From Candidatus Moranbacteria bacterium CG10_big_fil_rev_8_21_14_0_10_35_21 (GTDB lineage: Bacteria; Patescibacteriota; Minisyncoccia; Moranbacterales; UBA2206): a DNA stretch of 53,652 nucleotides. Where the stretch lies: the NCBI GenBank assembly GCA_002773095.1, contig PFCG01000017.1, forward strand, positions 1-53,652. The letters run 5' to 3'. Under the pieces are notes generated by a model. It had not been told where the DNA came from. It saw only the letters and a program-made list of their open reading frames with translations, and did no database searches. Each line of letters begins with the position of its first letter. The stretch's first letter is position 1. Made by a program: the position numbers and the translations under genes. This document shows positions 4,014 through 53,500 of this stretch, one piece after another.

Positions 4014-4015
4014 AG

Positions 4016-5122: not shown

Positions 5123-5133
5123 ATACTTATATT

Positions 5134-6237: not shown

Positions 6238-6240
6238 TGT

Positions 6241-6954: not shown

Positions 6955-7094
6955 ATTTCTAATTTATATCATGGCCCCAACATAAAGTCGGGGTGCTCAC
7001 TTTTACAACCTCGCTTCGCTCAGGTAAAACTGCCAGAAATTTTGTGATAATATAAAACCTTATATTTTTAATCATATCATATCACTTCCAAACA

Positions 7095-7124
7095 AAAAAG
7101 GTTCCAAAAAAAGAAACCTTTTCT
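7095..7124. terminator. Hairpin, possible rho-independent terminator
   Basis: aaaaaaggttccaaaaaaagaaacctttt. Confidence 0.5.
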
Positions 7125-7165
7125 GCTAGCGAGCTCCTCTGCGGAGCTAAAAGTGCTAATATTTT

Positions 7166-7483
7166 CTAAACTTCAATGCCGCCTACGACATCGTCAATGC
7201 TTTTTTGAGCTCGCGGTTTTCTTTCACTTCCTTCTGGCTCATTAATTTTCAGATTAACTCTGGCATTGTTTTTGGCTCCAATTACTCTTAAAAGAGTTCT
7301 AAGAGCTTTGGCAGTCGCTCCTTCACGACCAATTATCATTCCCATATCTTCAGGACTTACATCCAACGTTATAAGAACTCCCATTTCATCGATTTTTCGA
7401 TCGATTTTTACGGAATCAGGATTGTTAACTATGCTTTTTACCACATATTCAACGAAATCCTTATCCCTTACAGGTTCAGTCAT
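7166..7483 (-). CDS. KH-domain RNA-binding protein (KhpA/YlqC-like); start refined to MTEPVRDKDF
   Basis: VKSIVNNPDSVKIDRKIDEMGVLITLDVSPEDMGMIIGREGATAKALRTLLR; the upstream 35 codons of the ORF look non-coding. Confidence 0.85.
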   Translation of the reverse strand: MTEPVRDKDFVEYVVKSIVNNPDSVKIDRKIDEMGVLITLDVSPEDMGMIIGREGATAKALRTLLRVIGAKNNARVNLKINEPEGSERKPRAQKSIDDVVGGIEV

Positions 7484-7676
7484 TTTCGTGATTCTATTAT
7501 TATATTTTAAGCAAGGGTTTTTCATGGAAGATCGACCGTCTGTCCCTGTTTCACCGCAAATGGCGAAAATTCTTAACCTTGCCTTCATTATTTATTATTA
7601 TGTGCTATAAAATTGAGTTTGTCAAATTAAAATTTCGAATATTATAAGCTATTTAATTTTCCCTGCATTTTTCGGA

Positions 7677-7806
7677 TCATAGAGGAAGATTTCTAACAGC
7701 TTCGCCTATGACTTCCAGTCTTCGAAGAGTTGCGTCTTGTTTCTATCTTTTCAATATTTTCCAAAATATGCTCGAGAAAAATTTTATGATCTTTTTTTAC
7801 TTTCAT
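7677..7806 (-). pseudogene. Degraded HEPN/DUF86 (HepT-like) toxin remnant
   Basis: Start region MKVKKDHKIFLEHILENIEKIE, then, in a shifted frame, TLRRLEVIGEAVRNLPL-stop, which matches the conserved HepT RRLEIIGEA segment. Confidence 0.75.
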
Positions 7807-8083
7807 ATATTACTTTTTGATCTTTTAAAATTATGTTTTTCAGAAGCGGGTGAATGCCTCCATACGAAATAACATCTACATCTCTACTAAGCCTGTCTTG
7901 TAATTCAAGTTTAAGATCAACAAGATCGAGCAAACTCTTGCTTTTAGCAAGTTTCACTAAAATATCAACGTCGCTATTTTTTGTTTCTTCCCCTCTTGCG
8001 AACGAGCCAAAAACAGCCGCTTTGAGAACTCCTTGGCGCCTGAGAATGGGCGTTATTTTCTTTTTGATAGTTTCTACTGTCAT
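7784..8083 (-). CDS. MNT-type nucleotidyltransferase (MntA-like antitoxin)
   Basis: AAVFGSFARGEETKNSDVDILVKL motif GSFARGE-x-SDxDIL; 99 aa. Confidence 0.88.
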   Translation of the reverse strand: MTVETIKKKITPILRRQGVLKAAVFGSFARGEETKNSDVDILVKLAKSKSLLDLVDLKLELQDRLSRDVDVISYGGIHPLLKNIILKDQKVIYESKKRS

Positions 8084-8255
8084 GTCTAAATCATAGCAAA
8101 AAAAGCTAAAATTGGCAACTTACGAATTTTGATTTTGTATTTGAAATTTATCCATTTAACTATTTTTTGGAGCATATGGTTAAAATTTATTGATTGGAAA
8201 ATATTTTTTAGCGTTTTTTTGGATTATTTTTTGTGAATTAATTAAAATTAATACA

Positions 8256-8728
8256 TTAAAATCCAAAAGTTTTACAGCCGGATACTCCGGTAAAATCAAT
8301 AGGTGTTATTCCATACCACCCAGACACATTGCTATTATTACCACAAACAATTATCCCATTACCACTAACACTACAGCATAATAAGAACCTGCGCTGCTTC
8401 CCCATCCTCCACAACCATTTCCGCAATAAACAAATGTTGTGTCGGAAATATTAGGAAGTGCTCCTCCAGAACCATCAGCGCAAATAGTTGTTCCTTCGGT
8501 TCCATCGGTTGGTGGAGCGTTGAGAGAGCTTCCGCTGATTATACACATATCAGCCTGCGATTTTATAGATTGCATAGCAGATAACGCTTTGGCCTGTTTG
8601 GATTTTGTCCTCGCTCCGTTCAAACTCACCAAAACAATAGATGCTAAAATTCCAATGATGGCAATGACAATTAGAAGTTCGATCAGTGTGAACCCCCCCC
8701 CACTTGAATTTATTTTTGTTTTGTTCAT
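8256..8728 (-). pseudogene. Type IV pilin-like protein, apparently frameshifted near 8360-8370 (intact ORF 8351-8728)
   Basis: GFTLIELLIVIAIIGILAS pilin N-terminus; the other frame continues SVSGNGIIVCGNNSNVSGWYGITPIDFTGVSGCKTFGF-stop at 8256. Confidence 0.7.
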
Positions 8729-8810
8729 AATTTACACATTAGCTAAGTTTAATATATCGTCTATTTTTTTTATTATATAATATTCCATAAAAATGAAAAC
8801 TTTAAAAGAT

Positions 8811-9911
8811 TTATTTACCCATTCCTATTATGCCGATAATTACCCCGAGAATGGCTGTTACAGCTGTGAAAATCCAGGCTCTCATGGTCACCTTTGTTTC
8901 TGGCCAGCCTTTGGCTTCAAAATGATGATGTAAAGGCGCCGCTAAAAAAACTTTTCTTCCAAATAATCTTTTACTGGTTAATTGAATAACTACACTGCCT
9001 GATTCTAAAATATAAATAAAAACAATTAAAAATAAAATCAAATCAGAATTGGTCAACATAGCCATCACTCCCAAAGTGGTTCCTAGTGATATGGCTCCGG
9101 TATCTCCCATAATAAAACGGGCTGGGTAAATATTAAACCAAAGAAAAGCCAGAAGTGCACCAGCGATAGCCGCTGAAAAAGAAGCTAAGTCCATCTTATT
9201 TTGAAAAACAGAAATTATCGCAAAAGCCGAAAAGCCAAAGAGAAGTACTCCAGCATTTAATCCATCTAGTCCGTCAGTTTCATTAGAAGATATGGCACTA
9301 AAAAGAATAATAAAAATAAATACTACCACATACCAAATACCGATGGAAAAATCACCTACAGCTGGAACATGAATTTGATCCCAGCCTAATTTATCATAGA
9401 ACCACCAAGCGCCGGTTCCAGCAATGGCAAAGAGCCACCAAAATCTCATAGCAAATTTCATCCCTCCTCCTTTATTTTTTCCCCAACCGCGAATACTCAT
9501 ATAGTCATCCAATAATCCCAATATCCCGGCCGTTATTAAAATAAATAAAGGTAGCCAGGTTTGCGAACGATTAAGAAAATCCAATCTCGCAATAAAATTA
9601 ATATTCAAGGATTGCGCAATCCAAGGAAAAATATAATGAGAGGCCAAAATTAAAATCGCTACCGAAAACCAAACCAACACACCTCCCATAGTGGGTGTTC
9701 CGGCTTTTTCGGCGTGTAATTTATTTATGAAAGTAAGATCTTTGCCATCTACTGATTTACTTTTTATTTTTATTCCGATTTTATATTTATACAAAATTTT
9801 AGTCCATAGCGGAGTCAAAAGAAAAGCTAAAACAAAAGCCAAAAAACTGGTCGTTAAAACCTTCATAATATTAATCACTTCGGGAATAGTTTGTATTTGA
9901 GCAATTTGCAT
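8811..9911 (-). CDS. mraY: Phospho-N-acetylmuramoyl-pentapeptide-transferase
   Basis: AGTPTMGGVLVW; DDYMSI; NETDGLDGLNAG; FIMGDTGAISLG; APLHHHFEAKGWPETKV. Confidence 0.95.
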   Translation of the reverse strand: MQIAQIQTIPEVINIMKVLTTSFLAFVLAFLLTPLWTKILYKYKIGIKIKSKSVDGKDLTFINKLHAEKAGTPTMGGVLVWFSVAILILASHYIFPWIAQSLNINFIARLDFLNRSQTWLPLFILITAGILGLLDDYMSIRGWGKNKGGGMKFAMRFWWLFAIAGTGAWWFYDKLGWDQIHVPAVGDFSIGIWYVVVFIFIILFSAISSNETDGLDGLNAGVLLFGFSAFAIISVFQNKMDLASFSAAIAGALLAFLWFNIYPARFIMGDTGAISLGTTLGVMAMLTNSDLILFLIVFIYILESGSVVIQLTSKRLFGRKVFLAAPLHHHFEAKGWPETKVTMRAWIFTAVTAILGVIIGIIGMGK

Positions 9912-9995
9912 AAAGATAATTTTCCTCTTATATTATATCAGATTAAAATTTATTTCTAAACTATATTTTTAATCTAAATTTATAAATTATAGCTA

Positions 9996-10508
9996 TTAAT
10001 CAAACGTATATTTACACCCTGTAGAATTTCCTAAATTACTCCAAAATTGCCCTGGAGAACAATTTTGATCTTTACCTTCTAAAACCCAAAATATACTTGT
10101 TTTTTCGCCTAAAACGAGAGGTTGACCATAAAAATATCCAGAACTACCACGATTACTATCTGGGGGATCTATCGGAAGAGCTGAAACATAAGGTAATATA
10201 TAATTACTCGCAAATATGCCCCCATCATCAGTGTAGGTGCTAGAAGTCGAATTACAAAATTTACTAACACATCTCCACTTAGTATCTCCGGTTTTAGGAT
10301 AATTACCATTATAACTATTAATGGCTTCCATAGCTTTAATTAAAGATGCCACATCTTGTTTTCTACCAGCATTTCTAGCCTTACCCTTAGCACTGCTTAA
10401 TATAACTAAAACTACTGACGCCAAAATCCCAATAATCGCAATAACTATCAAAAGTTCAATCAATGTGAAACCCTGTTTTTTTGAAAGATAAACTTTTTTG
10501 GTCTGCAT
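9996..10508 (-). CDS. Type IV pilin-like / pseudopilin
   Basis: KKQGFTLIELLIVIAIIGILASVVLVILSSAKGKARNAGRKQDVASL. Confidence 0.88.
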   Translation of the reverse strand: MQTKKVYLSKKQGFTLIELLIVIAIIGILASVVLVILSSAKGKARNAGRKQDVASLIKAMEAINSYNGNYPKTGDTKWRCVSKFCNSTSSTYTDDGGIFASNYILPYVSALPIDPPDSNRGSSGYFYGQPLVLGEKTSIFWVLEGKDQNCSPGQFWSNLGNSTGCKYTFD

Positions 10509-10560
10509 TTTATTTTAAACTTTTTTATTTTGTGTTTTTTGTTTCCAACTTTTCAATTCC

Positions 10561-11580
10561 CTACTTCCATTCATACGCTTCGAAAGCCCAATTGACCAGC
10601 GTGCGCATATCTTCCCAACGTTTTTCATCATCCAAAAGCACTGCCACAATACGATGACCCTCTGGATCTTTAGCCGCAGCCAAAAGAGATTTTCCGGCCA
10701 TCGGAGTAAAACCAGTTTTTCCTCCAATAAATTTCGAATCTTCCCCCACTAAAATATCCGTATTGACCAATTCATGCATATAGGTTCCATCAGCAGAATA
10801 AAATTTTCCGTCAGGAATACGCATAATTTCCCAAATTAAATCATATTTTAGAGAATAAGCTCCAATGCGAGCAATATCATAAGCTGAAGAATAACATTGA
10901 TCTTCCTGCCCATCTATTTCTAATCCTGAAGCGGTGCAAAAATGAGTATCCTTCAATCCAAGACTTTTTGCTTTTTCATTCATCTCTTTAACAAATTTTT
11001 CTTCATTTCCAGAAATATTATAGGCCAATGAATAAGCGGCGTCATTAGCACTATTCATTAGCATTACTCTTAAGAGATTAATGGCTTTTACTTTTTCCCC
11101 AGTGTAAAGACGATTACTTGGGCAAACTCCTGATGTCGGACAGCCGACCACTGTGCCAGGAAGAAGTGATGCTTCACGAGGAATAGTGACAATATTTGTT
11201 TCTAGATTTTGAATATTTTCAACAGCTAAAATAGCTGTCATTAATTTAGTCAGAGAAGCAATTTGAGTTTTTTTCCGTCCGTTATCATAATAAAGAATAG
11301 TTCCAGAATCAACATCAATAGCGACTGACGATCCGGCCCAAATTTTTTGATCATAATAATCTTTACTTCGGGTTGGGACAACTCCGGAAGCCACCGCACG
11401 ATCAATAGGAAATAAATTATATTTATTTAAATCAATAAAATCATTTTCACCCTCTTGTCCCTTATTTTCTCTAACAATATTTATTTTTTCTTTTCCTTTT
11501 CCCAACCAACCAAAATTACTAAAGATAACCCAAATAGGAATAAGAAAAAAAATAGTTAATTTTATAATTTTTTTGATCAT
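10561..11580 (-). CDS. dacA: D-alanyl-D-alanine carboxypeptidase (serine-type, S11); start refined to MIKKIIKL
   Basis: IASLTKLMTA (SxxK), MNSANDAAYSLA (SxN), GGKTGFTPMAGKSL (KTG). Confidence 0.9.
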   Translation of the reverse strand: MIKKIIKLTIFFLIPIWVIFSNFGWLGKGKEKINIVRENKGQEGENDFIDLNKYNLFPIDRAVASGVVPTRSKDYYDQKIWAGSSVAIDVDSGTILYYDNGRKKTQIASLTKLMTAILAVENIQNLETNIVTIPREASLLPGTVVGCPTSGVCPSNRLYTGEKVKAINLLRVMLMNSANDAAYSLAYNISGNEEKFVKEMNEKAKSLGLKDTHFCTASGLEIDGQEDQCYSSAYDIARIGAYSLKYDLIWEIMRIPDGKFYSADGTYMHELVNTDILVGEDSKFIGGKTGFTPMAGKSLLAAAKDPEGHRIVAVLLDDEKRWEDMRTLVNWAFEAYEWK

Positions 11581-11590
11581 AATAAATTCA

Positions 11591-12133
11591 TCAGGCAATC
11601 ACACTTTTAATTCTTGGATCTTTTGAAAGATTTTCAAAATCCGGGAGATTTTCCACTTTTTCCATTCCTAATCTTTTCAAAAATTCAAAAGAAATTTTAT
11701 AAAGATACCCTCGCCCATCTTTAGGATTTTCCATCCGATCAACCAATCCACGCATCAAAAGCGAACGAACAATAAAACTACAATTAACTCCACGAATAGC
11801 CTCCACTTCAATTCGAGAAATCGGACCACGATAGGCAATAATTGAGAGCACTTCTAGCGAAGCTCGACTCAAGCCTTCCTGAATTTCACTTTTTACCAGT
11901 TGATCCACATATTGAGCATTTTCCGGAGTAGTAGCCAATTGCAATTCATCCTCTTTCCTGATAATAATCATCCCCTTATTTCTTCCAGAATACTCGGTTT
12001 GAAGAAGCATGACTAAATTTTCCGTCTCTGGCTTAGATATACCTAAAATTTTGGCTATTCGGGAAATTTTCATCGGCGTCCCACTGACAAGAAGCAAACT
12101 TTCAATGGCTGATTTTATTTTTTCCTGTTCCAT
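11591..12133 (-). CDS. scpB: Segregation and condensation protein B
   Basis: IESLLLVSGTPMKISRIAKILG; LSRASLEVLSIIAYRGPISRIEVEAIRGVN; GRGYLYKIS. Confidence 0.93.
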   Translation of the reverse strand: MEQEKIKSAIESLLLVSGTPMKISRIAKILGISKPETENLVMLLQTEYSGRNKGMIIIRKEDELQLATTPENAQYVDQLVKSEIQEGLSRASLEVLSIIAYRGPISRIEVEAIRGVNCSFIVRSLLMRGLVDRMENPKDGRGYLYKISFEFLKRLGMEKVENLPDFENLSKDPRIKSVIA

Positions 12134-12141
12134 AATATATG

Positions 12142-12864
12142 CTAAATTTCGCCTCGAATGGCACTTCTAGTTTTTAATTTTATTTCCTTAAATAAATCTT
12201 TTTGTTCCACTTCAACAATTCTTTGCTTAATCATTTCCAACATAGCCAGAAAGGAAATTATGATATCTACTTTATCCTGAGCTTTGGCAGTTAATTCCGA
12301 AAATGATGTTTCAATCCTATGGAGGATGGTGTCTTGCAGTTCATTTATTTTTTCTTCCAAGGTTACAACTTCTCTGACTATTTCTTCTTCCAATTTTTCC
12401 ATCAAAGGAATTTCAGCCAACACCAATTGAAAAAACTTTTTTAAATCAAAGGCATTGATATTCTTGGGTGGGAAAAACACTGCTTTCACTCCAAAAAAAC
12501 TTTCCCGAGAATAGGCTATCCTCCCTTGACCGGCTATTTTTCCTATTTTTTCCGAAGCCAATTTGAAACGACGATACTCTTCCAATTGATAGGTTAGATC
12601 TTTTATTTCATCCTTTTCTTCTTCCGTAAACTGGAACATAGGCAAAATAGCTCTGGACTTAATCAAAATTAATTTGGAAGCAATGGACAAAAAGTCAGCT
12701 AAATTTTCTAAATTAATTTTTTCATTATTTTTTATGAAATCAAGGTACTGATCAGAGACATGCGCTAAACTTAATTCGGTAATGACCATCTTTTCATTCT
12801 CAATCAACTCAAGAAGCAATTCCAGAGGTCCCTCGAATTTTTCATTTTTATATCGATACTTCAT
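12142..12864 (-). CDS. scpA: Segregation and condensation protein A
   Basis: FEGPLELLLELIENEKMVITELSLAHVSDQYLDFI; ADFLSIASKLILIKSRAILP. Confidence 0.92.
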   Translation of the reverse strand: MKYRYKNEKFEGPLELLLELIENEKMVITELSLAHVSDQYLDFIKNNEKINLENLADFLSIASKLILIKSRAILPMFQFTEEEKDEIKDLTYQLEEYRRFKLASEKIGKIAGQGRIAYSRESFFGVKAVFFPPKNINAFDLKKFFQLVLAEIPLMEKLEEEIVREVVTLEEKINELQDTILHRIETSFSELTAKAQDKVDIIISFLAMLEMIKQRIVEVEQKDLFKEIKLKTRSAIRGEI

Positions 12865-13364
12865 TATTTTTTCGCCATACTAAAACTTTCTCTTTTCGGA
12901 TTTTCATTTTTCAGATATTGAGATATGTTTATTCTTAGCGACATTTCATATTCGCCCGAACCGACATAAATTTTTTTATTTTTTTCCAAAAGCTTATCCA
13001 TAAAAATTTCTAACTTCAAAAAATCTCCGAACGGTGCGGTGGCACCAACTTTTCCGGGGATATTTTTTTTCATCCAAACTTCTTTGGCAAAATCAATTTT
13101 TTTGCAATTTTTTTCTCCTTTTTTCTTTCTGTCTACATTTATAATTTTCAACAATTTTTTCTTGTCTAAATTTTTGTTGGCTGGAATCAACGCCAAAATA
13201 TAATCATTATCCGCTTTTATTACTAGGGATTTTCCTACTTCTTTTGGCTCCACTTTTTCTGTTTGAGAAGTATCCCAAGCCGTATAGGTGGTTCGGTGCT
13301 CAATAATATCAACTTTATATTTTTTCTCCGCTAAATAGGCGGATAATCTTTTTGAAATTTCCAT
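12864..13364 (-). CDS. YbaK/EbsC-type aminoacyl-tRNA deacylase (trans-editing domain)
   Basis: VDIIEHRTTYTAWDTSQTEKVEPKEVGKSLVIKADNDYILALIPANKNLD; GATAPFG. Confidence 0.78.
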   Translation of the reverse strand: MEISKRLSAYLAEKKYKVDIIEHRTTYTAWDTSQTEKVEPKEVGKSLVIKADNDYILALIPANKNLDKKKLLKIINVDRKKKGEKNCKKIDFAKEVWMKKNIPGKVGATAPFGDFLKLEIFMDKLLEKNKKIYVGSGEYEMSLRINISQYLKNENPKRESFSMAKK

Positions 13365-13480
13365 ATAATTGCCTTATCTCCAAACGTTTTTGCGTAAGTG
13401 ATAAGTTATATAATTTAAAAAATAACCAGGTTTTACTTTACCCAGTATAGCATAGGTTTATTTTTTTATCCACCCTGCAG

Positions 13481-14686
13481 TTAAGCCCTTCTTAACTCTT
13501 TTTCGCTTTTATTGTCACGTAGTTTAAGCGCTGGAAAAAGAGCCGAAAGAACGATAATAGTTACCAAAATAAAAGCAGCTTTGAGAGGCATAAAAAGTAT
13601 AATGATTGAAGATATTCCAGTCGCCAAAATATAGGCCACCGGCTTGGATGTTCGAAAAAAATCAATAACATCAACATCATATACATCAATTTTTTTATAA
13701 AAATAGGAATCGCGCAGAATTTCAATTAATGCTGCTCCAATACGAGTAATGAAAAGCACTGAAACCCAAAGCACTATATTTAGCGAGGATATGAAATAGA
13801 TACTTAGAGTAGCCAATCCCATAAGAATTATAGAAAATATTAGAAGCTCTTTTTCTCCAGATTCTTTATCCGCATAAATTCCGGCTGGATATTGAAAAAG
13901 GACAAAAGGCAAAAGCATAATAGTAAAAATCAATCCAATTTGACTCCACTCAAACCCAATAGCTCGGAGATGCAGTGGAGTATAAATAACCATCAAGGCA
14001 TAAAAAAAATCTAAAACAAAAGCAATATAATAAATTCTCATGATATTTTTTTTGTGAAAAACTTTTCTGATTATTCCTATTATTTTCAAAGTTCGATGAA
14101 AATTATCATTTACTTTTCTGATGGTTAATAAAGCAAAAACAAAAATCAGAGAATTATAAATTAAAAGAAAACAAAAAATTCCGTAAAAATTAAATTTTTC
14201 AAGAAGCAGGGCAGATAGCATCGGGCCGAATAAAAAACCGAGATTAAAAAGCGTTAAGAAAAGTCCCCTTATCCTTCCCGAAACTTTATCAGCTGAAAAC
14301 GATTCTAAAATAATATCCATACTCACCGCTTGAGTAGAAGTGGCTAAAATATAAAGAATGACTAGCGGTACTGCAAACCAGGATGGCTCCACTAAAACCA
14401 ACGAGGTTATAATTATAATTTTAAAGAGAATGGCAAAATGGAGAAGATTAGCTTTACCGCTTATTTTTATAAACTTATGTAGATTTAAAAAAAGAAAAAA
14501 CACCAAGACATAGGCTATGGTGTAAAATATTCCTACATTTTCTGTTCCAGTCGCTAAAGAAAAATAAGAGGACATAACATAAATAAATACCGCCTCTGAA
14601 AAACCCAATAGAAAAGCGATAAAACTAATCAGTTTTACTTTCTTTTTATTTAAATTTTCTTCATGGCTGGAATAAATTTTTTTCAT
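13481..14686 (-). CDS. MFS transporter
   Basis: 12-TM-like hydrophobic profile; DIILESFSADKVSGRIRGLFLTLFNLGFLFGPMLSALL. Confidence 0.85.
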   Translation of the reverse strand: MKKIYSSHEENLNKKKVKLISFIAFLLGFSEAVFIYVMSSYFSLATGTENVGIFYTIAYVLVFFLFLNLHKFIKISGKANLLHFAILFKIIIITSLVLVEPSWFAVPLVILYILATSTQAVSMDIILESFSADKVSGRIRGLFLTLFNLGFLFGPMLSALLLEKFNFYGIFCFLLIYNSLIFVFALLTIRKVNDNFHRTLKIIGIIRKVFHKKNIMRIYYIAFVLDFFYALMVIYTPLHLRAIGFEWSQIGLIFTIMLLPFVLFQYPAGIYADKESGEKELLIFSIILMGLATLSIYFISSLNIVLWVSVLFITRIGAALIEILRDSYFYKKIDVYDVDVIDFFRTSKPVAYILATGISSIIILFMPLKAAFILVTIIVLSALFPALKLRDNKSEKELRRA

Positions 14687-44797: not shown

Positions 44798-45865
44798 TTA
44801 AAATTCTCTTTCAGCCATATAATCGGCTAGTCCTAATAAAAATTCCTTGGCTTCCGAATTAAATTCCATTTTTTCTAAGGAATCTTTTCCTTGAGCAATT
44901 AAATCTCGAGAAAGTTTTTGAGCATACTCAAGAGCACCGGTTTCCAGAATAATTGAACGAAATTTTTCTATATCAGCTGACTTAATATTTTTACTTCCTA
45001 GAAGAGCTTCCAAAATTTTCTTTTGAGCTGGCGTTCCTTTTTCTTTGGCTTTTTCCACCAAAAGAGTTTCTTTCCCACCTTTAATATCCGAACCAACTTC
45101 TTTACCTATTTTTTTCTCACTCCCAAAAATTCCTAAAATATCATCTTGGATTTGAAAGGCAATACCGATTGGAACTGCGAAAAGACTCAAGTTTTTTAAA
45201 AAATTTTCATCCGTTCCGCCTAAAATAGCTCCTAAATGTAATGGACCTTCTACTGTATAGCGAGCCGTTTTATATTCATACATTTTCAAGATTTCCTCCT
45301 CAGAAGCTTTTTGGCGATATTCAATATAAATATCTTTAGTTTGTCCAACCACAGTTAAGGAAACGATGTTCTGAAGTTTATAGAGAGCCTTCAAAATTAT
45401 TTTAGAATCAAAGGAAGAATTGAAAATTATTTGATTGCCTAATGCCCCTACCATATCGCCAATAATAATGGCCATCGAATTTCCAAAGTGATCAACAGAG
45501 TTCTTGGGAAATAATTTTTTTCCAATTTTTTCATAATGAAGATTAACTGTTTCCATTCCGTGTCTTTTACCATCGCGATCAATAATATCATCGTGAATTA
45601 GTAAAAACATATGAATCAATTCAATACTAACGGCCGTTTTCAAAATTTTCTCCTTTTCTTTTCCACCAGCCGCCAAATAACCATAGAACATAAAAGCCGG
45701 ACGAAGCCTTTTCCCGCCAGCTAAAATTATTTTTTTGACATAGCGAAGAGAATCAGTAGTAATTAAATCGATTTTAGCGACTTCTTTTATGGTCGCATCA
45801 AAATAATCCTCAATCTCTTTGTCAATTTTTTTCTTGAAATCTGCTAGTTCTTTTTTTACATCCAT
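44798..45865 (-). CDS. Polyprenyl synthetase (geranylgeranyl/octaprenyl diphosphate synthase-like); start refined to MDVKKEL
   Basis: GGKRLRPAFMFYGYLA; LIHDDIIDRD; QIQDDILGIFGSEKKIGKEVGSDIKGGKETLL. Confidence 0.92.
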   Translation of the reverse strand: MDVKKELADFKKKIDKEIEDYFDATIKEVAKIDLITTDSLRYVKKIILAGGKRLRPAFMFYGYLAAGGKEKEKILKTAVSIELIHMFLLIHDDIIDRDGKRHGMETVNLHYEKIGKKLFPKNSVDHFGNSMAIIIGDMVGALGNQIIFNSSFDSKIILKALYKLQNIVSLTVVGQTKDIYIEYRQKASEEEILKMYEYKTARYTVEGPLHLGAILGGTDENFLKNLSLFAVPIGIAFQIQDDILGIFGSEKKIGKEVGSDIKGGKETLLVEKAKEKGTPAQKKILEALLGSKNIKSADIEKFRSIILETGALEYAQKLSRDLIAQGKDSLEKMEFNSEAKEFLLGLADYMAEREF

Positions 45866-46004
45866 AGTCTCAATTATATCTCTTTGATGGTATATCATCA
45901 ACTTTCAATTAGCAAGAAGCTAGAGAATATTACTCAATATTTCCATTCGCTGATTTTTTTGCTATTATTGACTTTATGTAACGGTTATTTAAAAAGGAGG
46001 TTAA

Positions 46005-46118
46005 ATGAAAAAATATTTTCGTTTAATAAAAAGATTTTGCACTGCCGCCGTTTCGATTTCTCGGAACTCTCCTCCAAAGGCGGACAAGAAAAACAGAAAA
46101 TTTTCTTTTCCTTTTTGA
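46005..46118 (+). CDS. Small plus-strand ORF with consensus Shine-Dalgarno running into the repeat; possibly truncated
   Basis: aaaaaggaggttaaATG; MKKYFRLIKRFCTAAVSISRNSPPKADKKNRKFSFPF. Confidence 0.35.
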   Translation: MKKYFRLIKRFCTAAVSISRNSPPKADKKNRKFSFPF

Positions 46119-46200
46119 AAAAAATTTGGGCGCGCGACATCAAAAAAATGTAGAGAAAATTTTTCTGTTTTGGAGTTCCGAAAATTCGGAACGGCGGAAA
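46041..46200. repeat. Palindromic flanking repeat, copy 1
   Basis: 83-bp core (46092-46174) shared with 53379-53461, same orientation, 2 differences; inverted arms aacagaaaattttc / gaaaatttttctgtt. Confidence 0.9.
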
Positions 46201-46307: not shown

Positions 46308-47471
46308 CTACTTAATTTTAACAGCAATTGCATCTATTTCAAATAACAAATTATCTCGACAAATATCAGCATATACCGGAACAAACGGAATGTCTTTTAA
46401 TTTTGAATTTGCAATAAACTTTTTAAAATCAGTGTAAGCCTTTTTATTTTTGCAATATGCGGTAGCTATTACAATATCGCTAAGGCAAGATTTTTTGGTT
46501 CTCAATAATGATCTGATGCTTTTTAAAGTTTGCGCTATTTGCCCCGCTGCATCATCTAGACAAACAGTTTTTCCATTATTATCAATACTTGCTGTTCCAG
46601 AAATATACAGCGTTTCGGAGTTCTCTATTTTTACTGCCATTCCTCTTGAAAATAATGATCCATATTCTCGCGCCTCATTTTGACAAGTATTTTTCATTAC
46701 AGAAACAATGCATCTTGATGTTTTGGATATCAAAGTTAAAACATCTATAAAAATTTCTTCTTTCTCATTTCGTTTTCCCTGAATTCCTGTGCTGGCTGGC
46801 AAGTATTTTTTATTTTTACCAATTAAGCCAAACTCCTGAAAACATTTGGATCTTGCCTTATTAAATTCCGCATACCAATCGAGGATCTTTGGCATATAAA
46901 TCCAGGTGCGAATAACATTATTCATCTTATAACCATTGCTAGATAAAATATTCTTTATTTCAAAAAATGCATGTTCGGCTTGCTCACCTAGAGCAAGACC
47001 TTTTCTTTTTTGTGAACCAGAAATTCCCACAAGAAATATTTCCTTGAAATCGGCTGTTTCAAGAATTCTGCCGATAGATTCACCGCCAAAAAATACTGTT
47101 TTTGTTTTTACACTATTATTTTTTGCAATAACGCCGATGATTTGTATCCCTGCGATTATGCCGCCAACGCAAGGAGCACCCTCAATGAAAGTAAAGGGAA
47201 TGATATTTTCAGCAGGAAATAACTTTTTTATTAATCTATTTCTAATAGCAGTCGTCCTATTTCTCTTGGATAATGCCCCGTGAATTTTTTCTTGTAAGAT
47301 CCGAATGCCCTTATCTTTTAGTTGCTGATATATCTCGGAAAATAAATTACTAATCTGTGAATCGTCTTTAACGGCAACATTAAAAATCACGCTCATATAA
47401 ACAATTTTATATCCGCTATGTTCAATTTCCTGAATTTTAATGGATGCTTTTTCCCCTAGTTCAATTAACAT
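46308..47471 (-). CDS. Chorismatase-like protein (FkbO/Hyg5 family; RidA-like fold)
   Basis: NVIRTWIYMPKILDWYAEFNKARSKCFQEFGLI...LPASTGIQG; AREYGSLFSRGMAV...TLYISGTASIDNNGKTVCLDDAAGQIAQTLKSIRSLL. Confidence 0.75.
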   Translation of the reverse strand: MLIELGEKASIKIQEIEHSGYKIVYMSVIFNVAVKDDSQISNLFSEIYQQLKDKGIRILQEKIHGALSKRNRTTAIRNRLIKKLFPAENIIPFTFIEGAPCVGGIIAGIQIIGVIAKNNSVKTKTVFFGGESIGRILETADFKEIFLVGISGSQKRKGLALGEQAEHAFFEIKNILSSNGYKMNNVIRTWIYMPKILDWYAEFNKARSKCFQEFGLIGKNKKYLPASTGIQGKRNEKEEIFIDVLTLISKTSRCIVSVMKNTCQNEAREYGSLFSRGMAVKIENSETLYISGTASIDNNGKTVCLDDAAGQIAQTLKSIRSLLRTKKSCLSDIVIATAYCKNKKAYTDFKKFIANSKLKDIPFVPVYADICRDNLLFEIDAIAVKIK

Positions 47472-47480
47472 ATAACTTAT

Positions 47481-48812
47481 TTACCAATTTGTATCATTTG
47501 AAGTTAGCATATGATTAGCGCACATATGAGTAAAAAACAGATCTTTAATAAATTCTGCTTTTTCACTTGCTATATCAATAATTTGGAAAGAATGGTTGGT
47601 CTGCACATAAAGTTTTTCACCGTCCGGCGAAGGAGATATCGTTCCCACGCGACACTGTCTTTTTCCAAAAAACCCGGCGTTATTTTGTATTTCAAATTTT
47701 CGTATCAACTTCATATTTTCCGCATCCGCGATAAAAATAAAGTTTGGGGATCCGATAGCTGCTAATATTTTTTGTCCTCTGTGACTGAAAATATGAACAT
47801 TGGTTAATCTGAATAAATCTGGCTCTGTAAATACGGCCATTTCTTCTGGACCATTTTCAGTGAGTTTGTATTTATAGACGGAAGCAGGTCCGCGGAAATC
47901 AATATCGTAGGAAGCATTCCAAAGAGCTTTAAAAATATTGCTGTGCTTAAATTGAAAGTTGTGGCTTGAAAAATAAACAATATTTTGATCATTCGGGTCA
48001 AATTGAGCGTGAGCCGCTACAATAAAACGAGAGATTATCCATTGTTTTTTATTTTTCAAGTCTAAAATAAGAACCTTAGAGGGAATAATATTATTTTTAT
48101 CATCCACAAACATTCCCAACTCACAAGCCACGCAATATTGCTTATTATTGTTCACAATAATATCATGCATGTAATCCGAAAAGTTTCCTTTCCACATTTC
48201 CTCAATGTTTTCGTCATTAATCCTGCGCCTAGTGATTCTAGACGATACTTCATAGAATGGATTTTCTGTCTTTTTCAGTGAATCCGCGAGAGAATATGAC
48301 ATCTGATATAGTTCCCTTTTTTCCGGATCAAGCCACTGCTGAGAACCAAAAATATAATCATCGTCTGCGATTTTATATTCAACTGTCATTTTTTTGCAAT
48401 CAACAATTAAATATCCAAAATACGACCAAAGATTTATTATAAAACATCCGTCTTCCAATGCTGTAACTGCATGAGGAACAGTCATTATAGCCATTTGTTC
48501 CAAAGAATTAAATCCATAATGATATTTTCCCAATAATAACTTAATCACGGATTGATTTGGATATTTTTTATTCAAAACTTTCTTCAAATTATTCAAGCCT
48601 AGTTTTATGATATCCTTATGACTTATTTCAACGCAAAATCCTTCGTAATTTTTGAAATTATAAAAATAATAAGCATGCTTACTGTATTTAGATATCCAGC
48701 TTCCCTTGACGGTTGGCACAACTACCGAATGATTACCTGATGGTTTCAGTGGTAAAGTAAATTTTTCAATCTTTGCCTTAACTTTGTATGTTTTCATAAA
48801 ACTTTCTACCAA
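47481..48812 (-). CDS. Beta-propeller-like protein of unknown function
   Basis: Repeated blade-like segments, e.g. KILAAIGSPNFIFIADAENMKLIRKFEI, GTISPSPDGEKLYVQTNHSFQIIDIASEK. Confidence 0.6.
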   Translation of the reverse strand: MVESFMKTYKVKAKIEKFTLPLKPSGNHSVVVPTVKGSWISKYSKHAYYFYNFKNYEGFCVEISHKDIIKLGLNNLKKVLNKKYPNQSVIKLLLGKYHYGFNSLEQMAIMTVPHAVTALEDGCFIINLWSYFGYLIVDCKKMTVEYKIADDDYIFGSQQWLDPEKRELYQMSYSLADSLKKTENPFYEVSSRITRRRINDENIEEMWKGNFSDYMHDIIVNNNKQYCVACELGMFVDDKNNIIPSKVLILDLKNKKQWIISRFIVAAHAQFDPNDQNIVYFSSHNFQFKHSNIFKALWNASYDIDFRGPASVYKYKLTENGPEEMAVFTEPDLFRLTNVHIFSHRGQKILAAIGSPNFIFIADAENMKLIRKFEIQNNAGFFGKRQCRVGTISPSPDGEKLYVQTNHSFQIIDIASEKAEFIKDLFFTHMCANHMLTSNDTNW

Positions 48813-49456
48813 ATTAGCGGGATCATTTTTCTAACTTTTTTGCAATATTCAGAATATTTTATTCCAAAAATATCCATCAGAACAGCTTCCTCAAAATATA
48901 TGCGCCGAGTAAATGCGATAATTAGAACAATAAAATTTATAGCCACCGAAAACCATGCGTGTAAAAATAGAGCGCTAAAAGTATATGTTAATAATGCGCC
49001 AGCATATCCCGGGTGTCTCAAGAAACGAAATGGCCCTGTTTTAATTAAATTCTTACTTGTTTTGCGATCAATGTGCCAAGTGAATTGGCCTCCCAGCGTT
49101 GTAACCGCCCAAGAGCGTAGAATTAGCCCCACAAGCATTACTACTAACGCTATTGTAGTTATATAATCCCAATGCATGCTTTCCGGAAAACGTAGATATG
49201 TAGCTTCTGCAATAGTAATTATTTGGGTTATATAAATTGACCAGATTATTTGTAGGGCAGTCCCGCGATCTTCTTTGTCAACTGACTTTTTGAAAGGATT
49301 ATAGCTTGGCTGGAAAAACGAAGCAACTATACCAATTATTGCCATAATCCAAAGCTGTGGTGTATCAAGCATTTGTAAGTTTCCCACAATAGGCAAAATA
49401 ACAACTGTCGCAACAACTATTATCCCTAATAATATTTTTTGTGTATACAATTTCAT
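48806..49456 (-). CDS. ICMT/PEMT-like integral membrane methyltransferase
   Basis: GPFRFLRHPGYAGALLTY; YFEEAVLMDIFGIKYSEYCKKVRKMIPLIW. Confidence 0.83.
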   Translation of the reverse strand: MKLYTQKILLGIIVVATVVILPIVGNLQMLDTPQLWIMAIIGIVASFFQPSYNPFKKSVDKEDRGTALQIIWSIYITQIITIAEATYLRFPESMHWDYITTIALVVMLVGLILRSWAVTTLGGQFTWHIDRKTSKNLIKTGPFRFLRHPGYAGALLTYTFSALFLHAWFSVAINFIVLIIAFTRRIYFEEAVLMDIFGIKYSEYCKKVRKMIPLIW

Positions 49457-51141
49457 AATCCGATAGATTTTTTTATATGCCTAGTATCCAGGTGATGTGG
49501 AGAAGCACTCAACTGCTTCCATTTATATTGCGTATCTCTTTGACCAGACTTAACGCTATCTTTTAATATTTCATCCTCCCATTTATCATCCATAATATGT
49601 AAGCATGGTTTTTCGAGTCTGCCGGATCGTCTTTTTTGTCCATACTCAATATTGAAGATTGACAATAACTCGTCTAATTTTGGAATCAGAACGTCTGACA
49701 AAAAGATATCAGTCGGCTCTGAATTAATTTTTAGGAAAACATCATACCTATTTTTTTGTAGATTAGACACTGCTCGAAACTGTTGAACATCCAAATGATA
49801 TTGCGATTTTATTTTGTTTATCGCTAATATAAATTGATTCACATGCATTTTTTCTCCGGTTATATTAGTCATGTCTTGTCCCTTAGAAACAAATGCCACT
49901 TCAGGAGTATTTTTATAATAACCCGTTACCTCAACAATATCACTTATGTTATACCGAAAAAGTCCGCTCGTTGTGGTTAAAAGAACAAAATAACGCTTTC
50001 CGATTTCAAGCTCATGACTCAATAGCACGGATGGATTTTTGCCATTTATTTTTTCCTCGGGTATAAATTCATAAAAATTATTTTGAATCGCTAAAATACC
50101 TGAGGAACAATTATCTTCGTACGGCATCGAGATACTGCCTTCACTGGCCAGTAGGCCAGGATCCCTTTTTACAACATTTTTTCCATAAAATTTATCTAAA
50201 AATTCCGCTTGAAATCCCGCGCTTCCACCAAGCCAGCACCCAATCAACTTTAACTCTGGCCAACATCTCAAAGGAATAAGGCGATCATAATTTTTTAATA
50301 TTTGATCAAGAAAACTTGCTCTTTTTGGATCGGGTTTTATTTGGGATTGAATCTTTTTTATTATCTCCAAGTCCTTTTCATTCGGATTAAAATTCAACTG
50401 CGTATCCAATAATTTCCCTTCGCGAATTGAGCGAACTATTATGTCTTGGTGTTTTATGCCAATTTCTGCCAAGCGTATCAATGTGCTTGGATTTGGAGTA
50501 ATAATAAAAGAGATATCTGAAGCAAGCGCCATTCTCATAATTAAATAATATTTCAGTTCATAGTCTTCAATTTCCGAAACTATATATGGTATAACATAGG
50601 AGCGTGCCAATGCCCAAGGAAGATTTTTGTATATCATTCCAGAGGCACAACCGCAAGGAATACCTGATAGAGTATGTCCTTCAATCGCAGAGCCAGTAAT
50701 TCCTAAAATACCCCTATTTAACAATGCTGGATGATTCTTGGATACTCGATACAACCATTGGGTCATAAGTTTGACTGTAAGTTTTTGAGATTCATGAGTA
50801 ATAGGAATATATTTCGGCACCCCGCTGGTTCCGCTGGTTACATTAAACATTAGATGCTTATCTCGGGTTAAAATATTCTCTTTTCCATTAATAATCTTAT
50901 TTACAAGTGGCTCCAAGTTTTCATAATCTTGAATTGGAATTTTATTCTGAAAATCCATCTCACTGCGAATATCCGAAAAATTATGCAATTTTCCAAACTC
51001 CGTTTTTGCATTTTTGTTCAATATATCAAGCAATAATTTTCGTTGGGTTAAGCGAGGATTTGCAACTGCGCCCTCAAACGATTTATATAATCTTTTTCCT
51101 GCTAAATATATTGCCGTTTTCGCTAAAATACTGTTTCGCAT
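49453..51141 (-). CDS. GH3 family acyl-adenylating/amide synthetase
   Basis: LLLDILNKNAKTEFGKLHNFSDI; FNVTSGTSGVPKYIPIT; LLTTTSGLFRYNISDIVEVTGYYKNTPEVAFVSKGQDMTNITGEKM. Confidence 0.88.
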   Translation of the reverse strand: MRNSILAKTAIYLAGKRLYKSFEGAVANPRLTQRKLLLDILNKNAKTEFGKLHNFSDIRSEMDFQNKIPIQDYENLEPLVNKIINGKENILTRDKHLMFNVTSGTSGVPKYIPITHESQKLTVKLMTQWLYRVSKNHPALLNRGILGITGSAIEGHTLSGIPCGCASGMIYKNLPWALARSYVIPYIVSEIEDYELKYYLIMRMALASDISFIITPNPSTLIRLAEIGIKHQDIIVRSIREGKLLDTQLNFNPNEKDLEIIKKIQSQIKPDPKRASFLDQILKNYDRLIPLRCWPELKLIGCWLGGSAGFQAEFLDKFYGKNVVKRDPGLLASEGSISMPYEDNCSSGILAIQNNFYEFIPEEKINGKNPSVLLSHELEIGKRYFVLLTTTSGLFRYNISDIVEVTGYYKNTPEVAFVSKGQDMTNITGEKMHVNQFILAINKIKSQYHLDVQQFRAVSNLQKNRYDVFLKINSEPTDIFLSDVLIPKLDELLSIFNIEYGQKRRSGRLEKPCLHIMDDKWEDEILKDSVKSGQRDTQYKWKQLSASPHHLDTRHIKKSIGL

Positions 51142-51146
51142 ATTTT

Positions 51147-52307
51147 TTACTTTTTAGCCAGCACAATGATTTTGCTGGAATATTTAGACAAAATTTTATC
51201 ATCAATTTCAATTCCCAAACCATAACCTTTCAAAAGTGGCGCTTTTCCACCACGACCAAAATGTATCTCTTTTTTAGATATATCCTCAGCAAGTAAGAAG
51301 CTGCCAAATGATCCTTCTACAAACTCTGCATTGTTAAAATATGCGGCCAAAAAACGGCTGGCTACCGAAAGGATTGCAGTCTCACCAGCAAGACAACCTA
51401 GTTGTAATTTTAGTCCTGCCAATTCGGCCATTTTCGCAATTTCTAATGTCCTTGAAATCCCGCCTAATTTTGAAATGCGAAGATTAAAATAATCGCAAGC
51501 TTCATGTTTAATGAGATTTTTAGCGTCCGCAATAGTCACAAGTGATTCATCGGCCATAGTAGGTATTGAAATATTATCTTTTACTTTTTTGAAGTCATGA
51601 TAGTTGCTCCTTTTAATCGGCTGCTCAATACAGCTAATATTATATTGCTCGAGAATTGTTAGTGCCTTAATTGCCTTTTTTATTGTATATGCACCGTTTG
51701 CATCTAATCGTATAGAGCAAGTGTTTCCTAAAATATTTCGTATTTTTTCTATGCGAATTCGGTCATCATTATTGCCAATTTTTATTTTAATTTGCTTGAT
51801 ACCCAATTCTTTATATTTTTTTGCCAAAATTTCAGAATCCTTAATAGACCCTAGTCCAATTACTCCGCTATAGATAACGCTTTGTCGCTTTGGCCTTAAT
51901 AAATCAGAGAGTGATTTTTTTTGTTGTTTTAATAAACAATCTATGATGGCTAATTCCATCGCTCCTATAGCTGAATGCCAGGCGATGACACCCTTTGTTT
52001 TGCGATTTGGCAGACTATTTTTAATTTGAGCCAATGCTTTAATGGGGTCTCCGCCAAGTTTAATATCCGAATATTCCATACTGGAAATTTTTGGCCATAA
52101 AACTTTCTCTATATATTTAACCGCAGTTTGTATTTTTTCGCCTGTCACATAAAAACGGGGAGCTCCCTCCCCGTAACCGACAATTCCATTTTTCGTCATT
52201 AATCTAACAATTATCGACTCAGAAGTTTTTCTCACTTTCGTACTGTGGCGGAAAGTTCTTCTAAATGGAATCTTTATTATAAAAATAGTTGCGGATTGAA
52301 TTTTCAT
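51147..52307 (-). CDS. Enolase superfamily (mandelate racemase/muconate lactonizing-like) enzyme
   Basis: KQIKIKIG; SIRLDANGAYT; SCIEQPI; TMADESL; FNLRISKLGGISRTLEIA; GCLAGETAILSVASRFLA. Confidence 0.88.
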   Translation of the reverse strand: MKIQSATIFIIKIPFRRTFRHSTKVRKTSESIIVRLMTKNGIVGYGEGAPRFYVTGEKIQTAVKYIEKVLWPKISSMEYSDIKLGGDPIKALAQIKNSLPNRKTKGVIAWHSAIGAMELAIIDCLLKQQKKSLSDLLRPKRQSVIYSGVIGLGSIKDSEILAKKYKELGIKQIKIKIGNNDDRIRIEKIRNILGNTCSIRLDANGAYTIKKAIKALTILEQYNISCIEQPIKRSNYHDFKKVKDNISIPTMADESLVTIADAKNLIKHEACDYFNLRISKLGGISRTLEIAKMAELAGLKLQLGCLAGETAILSVASRFLAAYFNNAEFVEGSFGSFLLAEDISKKEIHFGRGGKAPLLKGYGLGIEIDDKILSKYSSKIIVLAKK

Positions 52308-52313
52308 AAAAGT

Positions 52314-52715
52314 CTAACTACGCGCTTGAAATTTTATTAATATATTTATCACATACACTTCACTTGGGGAGCTATTATTTGCCTTGAATGACAGAATTGT
52401 AATCATGCCGAGATTGAGCATAGTTACGCTGGTATTTGTTTTTTTTATAAAAAATGTATTATCTCTTCTTTCATTTTCCAATTTTAAAAGATTCAAAGCT
52501 TCGTTGATTTTTTTCTCGACAAATTCCGTGTGGTGAAAAATTATAAAAGAATACCGCCTTTGAATAAATAGACTTAAGGCAAGCAGAAAAACAGCCACTA
52601 TTATTTCTTGTGTATTTTTGTGATAAACCAACACAAAAACAATTGAGCAAAATAAAACTATTCCACCCAATAACCTAAACGATAGGCAGTTTATTCTCCC
52701 TAGAGCGATCTTCAT
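52314..52715 (-). CDS. Small two-TM membrane protein
   Basis: LLGGIVLFCSIVFVLVYHKNTQEIIVAVFLLALSLFI; in operon. Confidence 0.6.
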   Translation of the reverse strand: MKIALGRINCLSFRLLGGIVLFCSIVFVLVYHKNTQEIIVAVFLLALSLFIQRRYSFIIFHHTEFVEKKINEALNLLKLENERRDNTFFIKKTNTSVTMLNLGMITILSFKANNSSPSEVYVINILIKFQARS

Positions 52716-52727
52716 AAAATTAACTAT

Positions 52728-53174
52728 TTATGAATTCAATTCCAGCGCCAATTTTATATTTTGCAAAAATTGTTCAGCCTCTTTTTGGTTGGTTTGCTTC
52801 GCGACATCAAGCTTGATTTTTTCAAACAATGATTCCGGAGCCTCATATTCGACATCCAAAACTAAGTTTGTCATTCCATCATTTTCTGACAGTTGCTCTT
52901 TCCAATGGCTGGTAATTCCAATGCTGGTAGAGAAATTATAAGTTGTCGGGGATTCTATTTCATCAACTTCAACCGTTCCTTCAATTATAATCCCCGCCAT
53001 TTTGTACTTAAAATTGAATTTATCACCTTTTTTTACAGGCAGTTCAGGAACATCAGTATTTTCAATAAGGCCAGGCAATGTTAATGGGATATTATTTGGA
53101 TTTGTAACAAAATCGAAGACCTTGTTAATGGAAGCTTTAATGCTAACTTCGGCGTGCACTTTTTCTGTTTGCAT
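52728..53174 (-). CDS. SRPBCC/START-like ligand-binding protein (CoxG/polyketide cyclase-like)
   Basis: VHAEVSIKASINKVFDFVTNPNNIPLTLPGLIEN...; FKYKMAGIIIEGTVEVDEIESPTTYNF. Confidence 0.82.
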   Translation of the reverse strand: MQTEKVHAEVSIKASINKVFDFVTNPNNIPLTLPGLIENTDVPELPVKKGDKFNFKYKMAGIIIEGTVEVDEIESPTTYNFSTSIGITSHWKEQLSENDGMTNLVLDVEYEAPESLFEKIKLDVAKQTNQKEAEQFLQNIKLALELNS

Positions 53175-53348: not shown

Positions 53349-53500
53349 TTCCGCCGTTCCGAATTTTCGGAACTCCAAAACAGAAAATTTTCTTTTCCTT
53401 TTCAAAAAAAATTTGGGCGCGCGACATCAAAAAAATGTAGAGAAAATTTTTCTGTTTTGGAACTGAAATTTCTTCAAAATTTCAGGGCGGAAAGCGGGGC
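53349..53500. repeat. Palindromic flanking repeat, copy 2
   Basis: Direct copy of the 46092-46174 core; its left arm tttccgccgttccgaattttcggaactccaaaacag is the exact reverse complement of the right arm of copy 1. Confidence 0.9.

What the first reader, a model, noticed from the sequence alone, without database searches (positions are those of the whole stretch)
46308..53174. Candidate undescribed small-molecule pathway: chorismatase + GH3 synthetase + enolase-superfamily + ICMT-like operon
Seven minus-strand genes are packed with gaps of 12 bp or less, or 4-7 bp overlaps, suggesting one transcript. The set is chorismatase-like, beta-propeller, ICMT-like methyltransferase, GH3 family, enolase superfamily, small TM protein and SRPBCC. 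From family knowledge, FkbO/Hyg5 enzymes turn chorismate into a hydroxybenzoate or dihydro-derivative, and GH3 enzymes adenylate carboxylic acids and form amides with amino acids. Inferred model: an aryl or cyclohexadienyl acid is made, conjugated by GH3, modified by the enolase-type and methyl-transfer enzymes, and bound by the SRPBCC protein. I do not recognise this combination. It is unexpected in a genome that otherwise looks reduced, and chorismate might have to come from a host.
Basis: partly seen in the sequence, partly recalled or inferred. Interest (0 to 1): 0.9.

Follow-up and report, generated by a model that had tools for sequence, protein, structure and literature searches.

The report
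Acquired chorismatase–propeller biosynthesis operon in Patescibacterium
A tiny-genome bacterium that appears unable to make chorismate carries a borrowed seven-gene set for building a small molecule from it, and two of those genes (a chorismate-splitting enzyme and an unnamed propeller-shaped protein) turn up side by side in at least six other bacteria, so they probably work as a pair that nobody seems to have described.

Summary
The operon is real: seven minus-strand genes (46308-53174), gaps of 5-12 bp and one 4-bp overlap. The host has a 753-kb genome (I read it as Patescibacteria) and no chorismate synthase. Family assignments hold, and active-site residues are intact: the chorismatase has the equivalents of Hyg5 E334, C327 and G240; GH3 and the enolase-type protein keep their motifs. 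The whole set was found nowhere else; GH3 was absent from 93 relatives. Two things are new. First, the 'beta-propeller' belongs to no Pfam family, and it lies next to a chorismatase in all 7 cases found (this window, Myxococcota x2, Bdellovibrionota, Lachnospirales x2, a deltaproteobacterial plasmid), 4 of them found by searching with the propeller alone: a functional module reused in different clusters. Second, the operon is flanked by 85-nt direct repeats, 98% identical, found nowhere else in the genome, and its chorismatase nests among Myxococcota/Bdellovibrionota proteins: a horizontally acquired island. Best model: scavenged chorismate becomes a hydroxybenzoate-type acid, is joined to an amino acid by GH3, then epimerised and methylated. 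The chemistry is untested, and the curated chorismatase cut-off is not reached.

The parts
52728..53174 (-). SRPBCC/START-like protein (Polyketide_cyc2), 148 aa; first gene
   Evidence: Pfam PF10604 3.2e-10; no PDB relative by sequence
52314..52715 (-). Small membrane protein, 133 aa, two TM-like segments (8-34, 33-60), no family
51147..52307 (-). Enolase superfamily, MLE subgroup (dipeptide-epimerase / N-acylamino-acid-racemase / muconate-cycloisomerase relatives), 386 aa; motifs K174-I-K176, RLDAN 200, IEQP 227, ADES 252, ISKLGG 278 present
   Evidence: PF13378 1e-43; PDB 3jva 2.8e-39, 2p88 5e-31; motif positions
49453..51141 (-). GH3 acyl-acid amido synthetase, 562 aa; ATP motifs TSGTSG 102, LLASEG 330, FRYNISD 395
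   Evidence: PF03321/PF23571/PF23572 over cut-off; plant GH3 structures about 5e-23; closest found 31-33% in Planctomycetota
48806..49456 (-). ICMT/PEMT-type integral-membrane methyltransferase, 216 aa, RHP motif at 147
   Evidence: PF04140 6.8e-16; PDB 5v7p ICMT 1.1e-10
47481..48797 (-). Beta-propeller of an unnamed family, 438 aa; invariant P108-H109, A262-H263, S277/H279, R330, D358 in seven members
   Evidence: No Pfam family over cut-off; propeller model pLDDT 61, pTM 0.65, Foldseek hits are mostly propellers; alignment
46308..47471 (-). Chorismatase (two Rid-like domains), 387 aa; E378, C371, G292 = Hyg5 E334, C327, G240
46090..46174 (.). Flanking repeat, left copy: 85-nt direct repeat, itself an imperfect palindrome
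53377..53461 (.). Flanking repeat, right copy, 98% identical over 85 nt; only these two places in the whole genome

Best explanation
A horizontally acquired biosynthetic island. Its core is a two-gene module, chorismatase plus a dedicated beta-propeller protein, that turns chorismate (scavenged, because this cell lacks chorismate synthase) into a hydroxybenzoate-type acid, most likely 3-hydroxybenzoate judging by Hyg5-type residues. The GH3 enzyme adenylates a carboxylic acid, probably this one, and joins it to an amino acid. The MLE-subgroup enolase protein most likely epimerises (or otherwise isomerises) the conjugate by alpha-proton abstraction. The membrane ICMT-like enzyme methylates the product, probably as a carboxyl methyl ester, and the SRPBCC and small TM proteins bind or place the lipophilic product. 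Shown by computation: the operon, conserved active sites, the recurring chorismatase-propeller pair, the island boundaries. Inferred: every chemical step, their order, co-transcription.
For: Operon spacing. Catalytic residues conserved against Hyg5, 5ag3/5a3k (residue roles from PMC7170507) and in 84 chorismatases at independent positions R188, Y200, R207, R276, SGTA, Q311; homologues not chosen through the C..E search pattern (L008, L129, L130, L138) also keep C371/R372/E378. The propeller lies beside a chorismatase in 7 of 7 places, in both gene orders; L008, L129, L130 and L138 were found by propeller searches alone. Relatives sit next to DAHP-synthase-type genes (L018, L019, L129) and in NRPS/PKS-type clusters (L048, L130). 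GH3 ATP motifs intact; a plant GH3, PBS3, conjugates isochorismate to Glu (PMC11416591) and planctomycete OlsH makes N-acyl ornithine (PMC12493201). Enolase relatives are epimerases/racemases acting on peptide or N-acyl amino-acid alpha-carbons. Island: 98% direct repeats at both ends, found nowhere else, GH3 missing from relatives and chorismatase unique in the phylum sample, chorismatase nested with Bdellovibrionota/Myxococcota at 100/99 and 100/93 support.
Against: No chorismate synthase in the host genome, so substrate supply is unexplained. The full gene set was not found elsewhere, so the GH3/enolase/ICMT steps have no comparative support as one pathway. Chorismatase score 47.6 bits against a curated subfamily cut-off of 325. 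The enolase protein could not be assigned to one reaction. The propeller's role is unknown, and the closest chorismatase relatives L018/L020 have no propeller in their genomes.
Confidence: 0.55

Rival explanations
1. Lipid-type pathway: GH3 and ICMT-like enzymes make an N-acyl amino-acid membrane lipid (as OlsH does for ornithine lipid), the enolase protein epimerises it, and the chorismatase/propeller pair makes a separate head group or is incidental.
For: GH3 has a detectable OlsH profile match (3.4e-20) and its closest relatives are planctomycete; OlsH makes N-acyl ornithine; ICMT/PEMT proteins are membrane methyltransferases; the SRPBCC match is to a lipid-transport family.
Against: OlsH score 72 bits versus cut-off 620; no OlsI/acyltransferase in the operon; a chorismatase has no place in the OlsH pathway.
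Confidence: 0.2
2. Prenylated aromatic / quinone-like product: the chorismatase supplies hydroxybenzoate for a UbiA prenyltransferase fed by the polyprenyl synthase gene next door (44798-45901).
For: Polyprenyl synthase and IspG genes lie next to the operon; two UbiA-family genes in the genome; XanB2-type chorismatases can supply 4-hydroxybenzoate for ubiquinone (background knowledge), and an Acidiphilium chorismatase-like gene sits beside UbiT/U/V-like genes.
Against: The UbiA genes are on other contigs beside lycopene-cyclase-like and CarS/CDP-alcohol-transferase-like genes, which suggests carotenoid or ether-lipid roles; GH3 and the enolase protein are not quinone enzymes; the polyprenyl synthase lies outside the flanking repeats.
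Confidence: 0.1
3. The chorismatase homologue acts on a substrate other than chorismate, so the shikimate link is misleading.
For: No chorismate synthase; the closest relatives (40-46% identity) are all uncharacterised.
Against: All tested active-site positions are conserved with Hyg5; close relatives lie next to DAHP-synthase-type genes.
Confidence: 0.15
4. Assembly or binning artefact: the operon belongs to another organism and was joined at the repeat.
For: It lies at the contig end and is bounded by near-identical 85-nt repeats.
Against: The two copies are not identical (98%); GC (0.31-0.36 versus 0.355) and most codon usage match the contig; the operon, like most host genes, lacks Shine-Dalgarno sites.
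Confidence: 0.1

Closest known systems
FkbO/Hyg5/XanB2 chorismatases
   Same: Two Rid-like domains, same catalytic Glu, Cys/Gly pair of the Hyg5 type
   Different: Scores far below the curated FkbO/Hyg5 cut-off; partnered with an unnamed propeller; sits in a genome without chorismate synthase
GH3 acyl-acid amido synthetases (plant GH3.12/PBS3, JAR1; bacterial OlsH)
   Same: All three GH3 domains and ATP-binding motifs
   Different: Distant from both plant and OlsH branches; substrate unknown; not beside OlsI
MLE-subgroup enolase superfamily (dipeptide epimerase, N-succinyl amino-acid racemase, muconate cycloisomerase)
   Same: K-x-K, D/E/D metal ligands and final K by motif
   Different: Best model scores far below each curated cut-off, so no single reaction can be named
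Chorismatase-containing biosynthetic clusters (FK506/rapamycin, hygromycin A, neoantimycin, xanthomonadin/arcuflavin)
   Same: A chorismate-derived acid feeds a ligase and tailoring enzymes
   Different: No PKS/NRPS/aryl-polyene genes; GH3 as the ligase; enolase-type and ICMT-like tailoring; propeller partner

Membership tests
FkbO/Hyg5-type chorismatase | Catalytic Glu (Hyg5 E334) | tested here: met
   E378 aligns in profile alignment to 5ag3; conserved in 84 rows
FkbO/Hyg5-type chorismatase | Hyg5-subtype residues G240 and C327 | tested here: met
   G292 in SGTAS and C371; FkbO has SATAG and AR at these places
FkbO/Hyg5-type chorismatase | Score over curated NCBIfam cut-off TIGR04444 | tested here: not met
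   47.6 bits versus 325; N-terminal Pfam PF21168 23.4 versus 27
FkbO/Hyg5-type chorismatase | Turns chorismate into hydroxybenzoate or dihydrodiol acid plus pyruvate | not testable with these tools
   needs enzyme assay
Generic single-domain Rid (imine deaminase) | Single about 130-aa Rid domain | tested here: not met
   387 aa with two Rid-like regions; profile finds Hyg5/FkbO ahead of single-domain Rid proteins
GH3 synthetase | GH3 N, middle and C domains over Pfam cut-off | tested here: met
   206.6, 76.7, 33.1 bits against 23.6 each
OlsH lyso-ornithine lipid synthetase | Score over NCBIfam cut-off NF052613; OlsI in operon | tested here: not met
   72 versus 620 bits; no alpha/beta-hydrolase gene in the operon
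MLE-subgroup enolase superfamily | K-x-K, three acidic ligands, final K | tested here: met
   motif positions, alignments
Dipeptide epimerase / NAAAR / muconate cycloisomerase (specific reaction) | Score over the curated cut-off of one equivalog | tested here: not met
   152.7 versus 335, 139.7 versus 500, others lower
Carotenoid cleavage oxygenase (RPE65) for the propeller | Pfam RPE65 over cut-off | tested here: not met
   16.3 versus 27 bits, one of six members only
Carotenoid cleavage oxygenase (RPE65) for the propeller | Four metal-binding His at the propeller axis | tested here: inconclusive
   three His invariant in 7 members plus one near-conserved; CCD 6vcf among top Foldseek hits but TM only about 0.43 on a pLDDT 61 model
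ICMT/PEMT methyltransferase | Pfam ICMT over cut-off, membrane segments | tested here: met
   58.9 versus 24 bits; three hydrophobic stretches

The most novel reading that the evidence does not exclude
Chorismatase plus this unnamed His-rich propeller form an undescribed two-protein catalytic module that makes a new chorismate-derived building block in clusters of at least five bacterial groups, and an ultrasmall Patescibacterium acquired it to turn chorismate taken from its host or neighbours into an amino-acid-conjugated signal or toxin.
Probability: 0.3. Interest if true: 0.85.

Novelty: new variant of a known kind. Interest (0 to 1): 0.6.

Why it matters
Patescibacteria are usually read as metabolic minimalists; a repeat-bounded, seven-gene specialised-metabolism island that uses a central metabolite the cell apparently cannot make would point to chemistry fed by the host cell. 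More generally, the constant pairing of a chorismatase with a propeller protein that has no Pfam family, in Bacillota, Myxococcota, Bdellovibrionota, a deltaproteobacterial plasmid and Patescibacteria, gives a directly testable clue to a missing step in chorismate-derived natural products and a handle for genome mining.

Tried and rejected
Propeller as a carotenoid oxygenase: Pfam below cut-off in one of six members, no PDB sequence relative of note, several carriers belong to groups of anaerobes (background knowledge); kept only as a fold resemblance. Single-sequence structure of the propeller was poor (pLDDT 42); a three-sequence alignment gave pLDDT 61. Looking for the whole operon: GH3 in 93 relatives and 380 phylum genomes, GH3 in 50 chorismatase genomes, window genes against 80 chorismatase loci, plasmids, viral contigs: no second complete copy. 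GH3 neighbourhoods in Planctomycetota share nothing else with the operon. Literature: no paper in the library holds both 'chorismatase' and 'propeller', or GH3 with chorismatase and gene cluster; subscription journals are not covered. The host was named Patescibacteria by gene content, size and context, not by a marker tree.
Full report
WHAT IS THERE. The window is one contig (C21) of a 753,167-base genome, 94.85% complete, 0% contamination. At its end lie seven minus-strand genes, 53174 down to 46308, with distances 12, 6, 5, -4, 8 and 9 bp once the propeller start is moved to the ATG at 48797. Co-transcription is inferred.

FAMILIES. Pfam and NCBIfam give: SRPBCC; a two-TM protein without family; enolase superfamily (MLE subgroup by motif); complete GH3; ICMT/PEMT methyltransferase; a propeller without family; and a two-domain Rid-fold protein whose best specific profile is FkbO/Hyg5 chorismatase, far below that model's strict cut-off.

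CHORISMATASE. A profile of six homologues finds Hyg5 (5ag3, 1.5e-30) and FkbO (4bps) ahead of all single-domain Rid proteins in the PDB. The alignment puts E378 on Hyg5 E334, C371 on C327 and G292 on G240; PMC7170507 describes E334 as essential and the Gly/Cys residues as typical of the Hyg5 subfamily, which makes 3-hydroxybenzoate; FkbO differs at both discriminating places. Among 84 homologues, R188, Y200, R207, R276, S291-G292-T-A294 and Q311 are conserved in all or nearly all. C, R and E near the C-terminus were partly selected by the search pattern, but four homologues found by other routes keep them too. Activity remains untested, and by residues alone 3-HBA, 4-HBA or an uncharacterised product cannot be separated.

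SUBSTRATE SUPPLY. Chorismate synthase (PF01264) is absent from the genome, while the same search rings in 14 of 14 control genomes. With about 95% completeness an unlucky gap is possible but not likely.

THE RECURRING PAIR. The propeller is recognised by no Pfam model over its cut-off and no convincing PDB sequence. A model from three sequences (pLDDT 61, pTM 0.65) is mostly beta strands, and the Foldseek matches are propellers of many kinds, including an archaeal carotenoid dioxygenase and NirN; I take only the fold from this. Searching with the propeller alone gave one plasmid (CP026658, cockroach-gut deltaproteobacterium Smac51), one further Myxococcota genome of 284, one further Lachnospirales genome of 295 and one Bdellovibrionota genome of 369. 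In each the neighbouring gene is a chorismatase. The two other cases (L019 Myxococcales, L048 [Clostridium] polysaccharolyticum DSM 1801) came through the chorismatase scan. In 50 chorismatase genomes the only two propellers were the adjacent ones. The gene order is chorismatase-propeller in L019, L129 and L138, and propeller-chorismatase in the window, L008, L048 and L130. The surroundings differ: NRPS adenylation/carrier protein, B12 radical SAM, KAS-III-like and aminotransferase-like genes (L048), NRPS/PKS-like genes with carbamoyltransferase and a peptidase-U32-family protein (L130), DAHP-synthase-type genes plus B12 radical SAM or U32 (L019, L129). A constant pair in changing company and in both orders is the signature of two proteins that act together. 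In seven propellers P108-H109, A262-H263, S277/H279, R330 and D358 are invariant, with a further His 4 residues after R330 in most (5 in the window); a metal or acid-base site is plausible but inferred.

ORIGIN. The chorismatase tree places the window with Bacteriovoracaceae L018 and L020 (support 100/99), then with the two propeller-linked Myxococcota proteins (100/93). GH3 is missing from all 93 family/order relatives and occurs in 4 of 380 sampled phylum genomes, window included; the others are at most 30% identical. Chorismatase is unique in the same sample (the other hits are single-domain Rid stretches). The operon is bounded by an 85-nt direct repeat, 98% identical, which is also an imperfect palindrome and occurs nowhere else in the genome. 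This fits a mobile or repeat-mediated island. Composition is host-like except ICMT, TM and enolase-type genes, and like most host genes the operon lacks Shine-Dalgarno sites, which argues against a foreign contig.

MODEL. Chorismatase (with propeller) makes a chorismate-derived acid; GH3 activates an acid and makes an amide. Precedents: the plant GH3 PBS3 joins isochorismate to glutamate (PMC11416591); planctomycete OlsH joins fatty acids to ornithine (PMC12493201). An MLE-subgroup enolase would act naturally on the alpha-carbon of an N-acyl amino acid, as dipeptide epimerases and N-succinylamino-acid racemases do (relatives), though the specific reaction could not be assigned. The ICMT-like enzyme could methylate the remaining carboxylate. 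SRPBCC and TM proteins suggest a lipophilic or membrane-near product. I give this whole sequence about even odds and rate the lipid variant as the main rival. Secondary-metabolite clusters are described as uncommon in streamlined genomes (PMC12455944), although an antibacterial cluster has been reported in one CPR bacterium (PMC9927545).

LIMITS. No second copy of the complete operon was found, so the links between GH3, enolase, ICMT and the chorismatase rest on this operon alone. Metagenome contigs could not be scanned. The library of papers lacks most subscription journals.

Noticed in passing
L012 9881-12759, L013 9824-12810, L024, L028, L046, L047, L052, L054, L069, L072, L075: A different, larger chorismatase association: related chorismatases in Planctomycetota, Verrucomicrobiota, Bacteroidota and others lie near a YncE-like/cytochrome c propeller protein, in some loci also with SUMF1/EgtB-like and cytochrome c biogenesis genes. 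Function unknown; looks like a widespread undescribed gene set.
   Followed up: partly
L126 (another Patescibacterium, G143) 7063-13486: GH3 with a GNAT-like protein and B12-type radical SAM-like genes among ribosomal protein genes; a similar set in planctomycete L125 and on a Citrobacter portucalensis IncF plasmid (L015 9938-20395).
   Followed up: partly
L135 (own genome C25) 3976-10850: Genes that look like archaeal-type or unusual lipid synthesis: acyl-CoA-reductase-like, CarS-like, dolichol-kinase-like, CDP-alcohol transferase-like, PEP-synthase-like and a UbiA-family gene (only UbiA was HMM-checked; the rest read from sequence).
   Followed up: no
L136 (own genome C20) 8168-10539: Two small lycopene-cyclase-like ORFs beside a 543-aa UbiA-family protein, suggesting carotenoid chemistry in this reduced genome (cyclase naming by eye).
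   Followed up: no
L010 3491-7280 (Acidiphilium cryptum pACRY03): XanB2-like Rid/chorismatase gene next to SCP2 and two U32 genes (UbiT/U/V-like) on a conjugative plasmid: possible oxygen-independent quinone hydroxylation cassette with its own hydroxybenzoate source.
   Followed up: no
L129 12164-13537 and L130 886-2007: Peptidase-U32-family proteins (43-47 bits, cut-off 22.4) near the chorismatase-propeller pair; U32 relatives such as UbiU/UbiV are known to perform oxygen-independent hydroxylation using prephenate (background knowledge), so they may hydroxylate the aromatic product.
   Followed up: no
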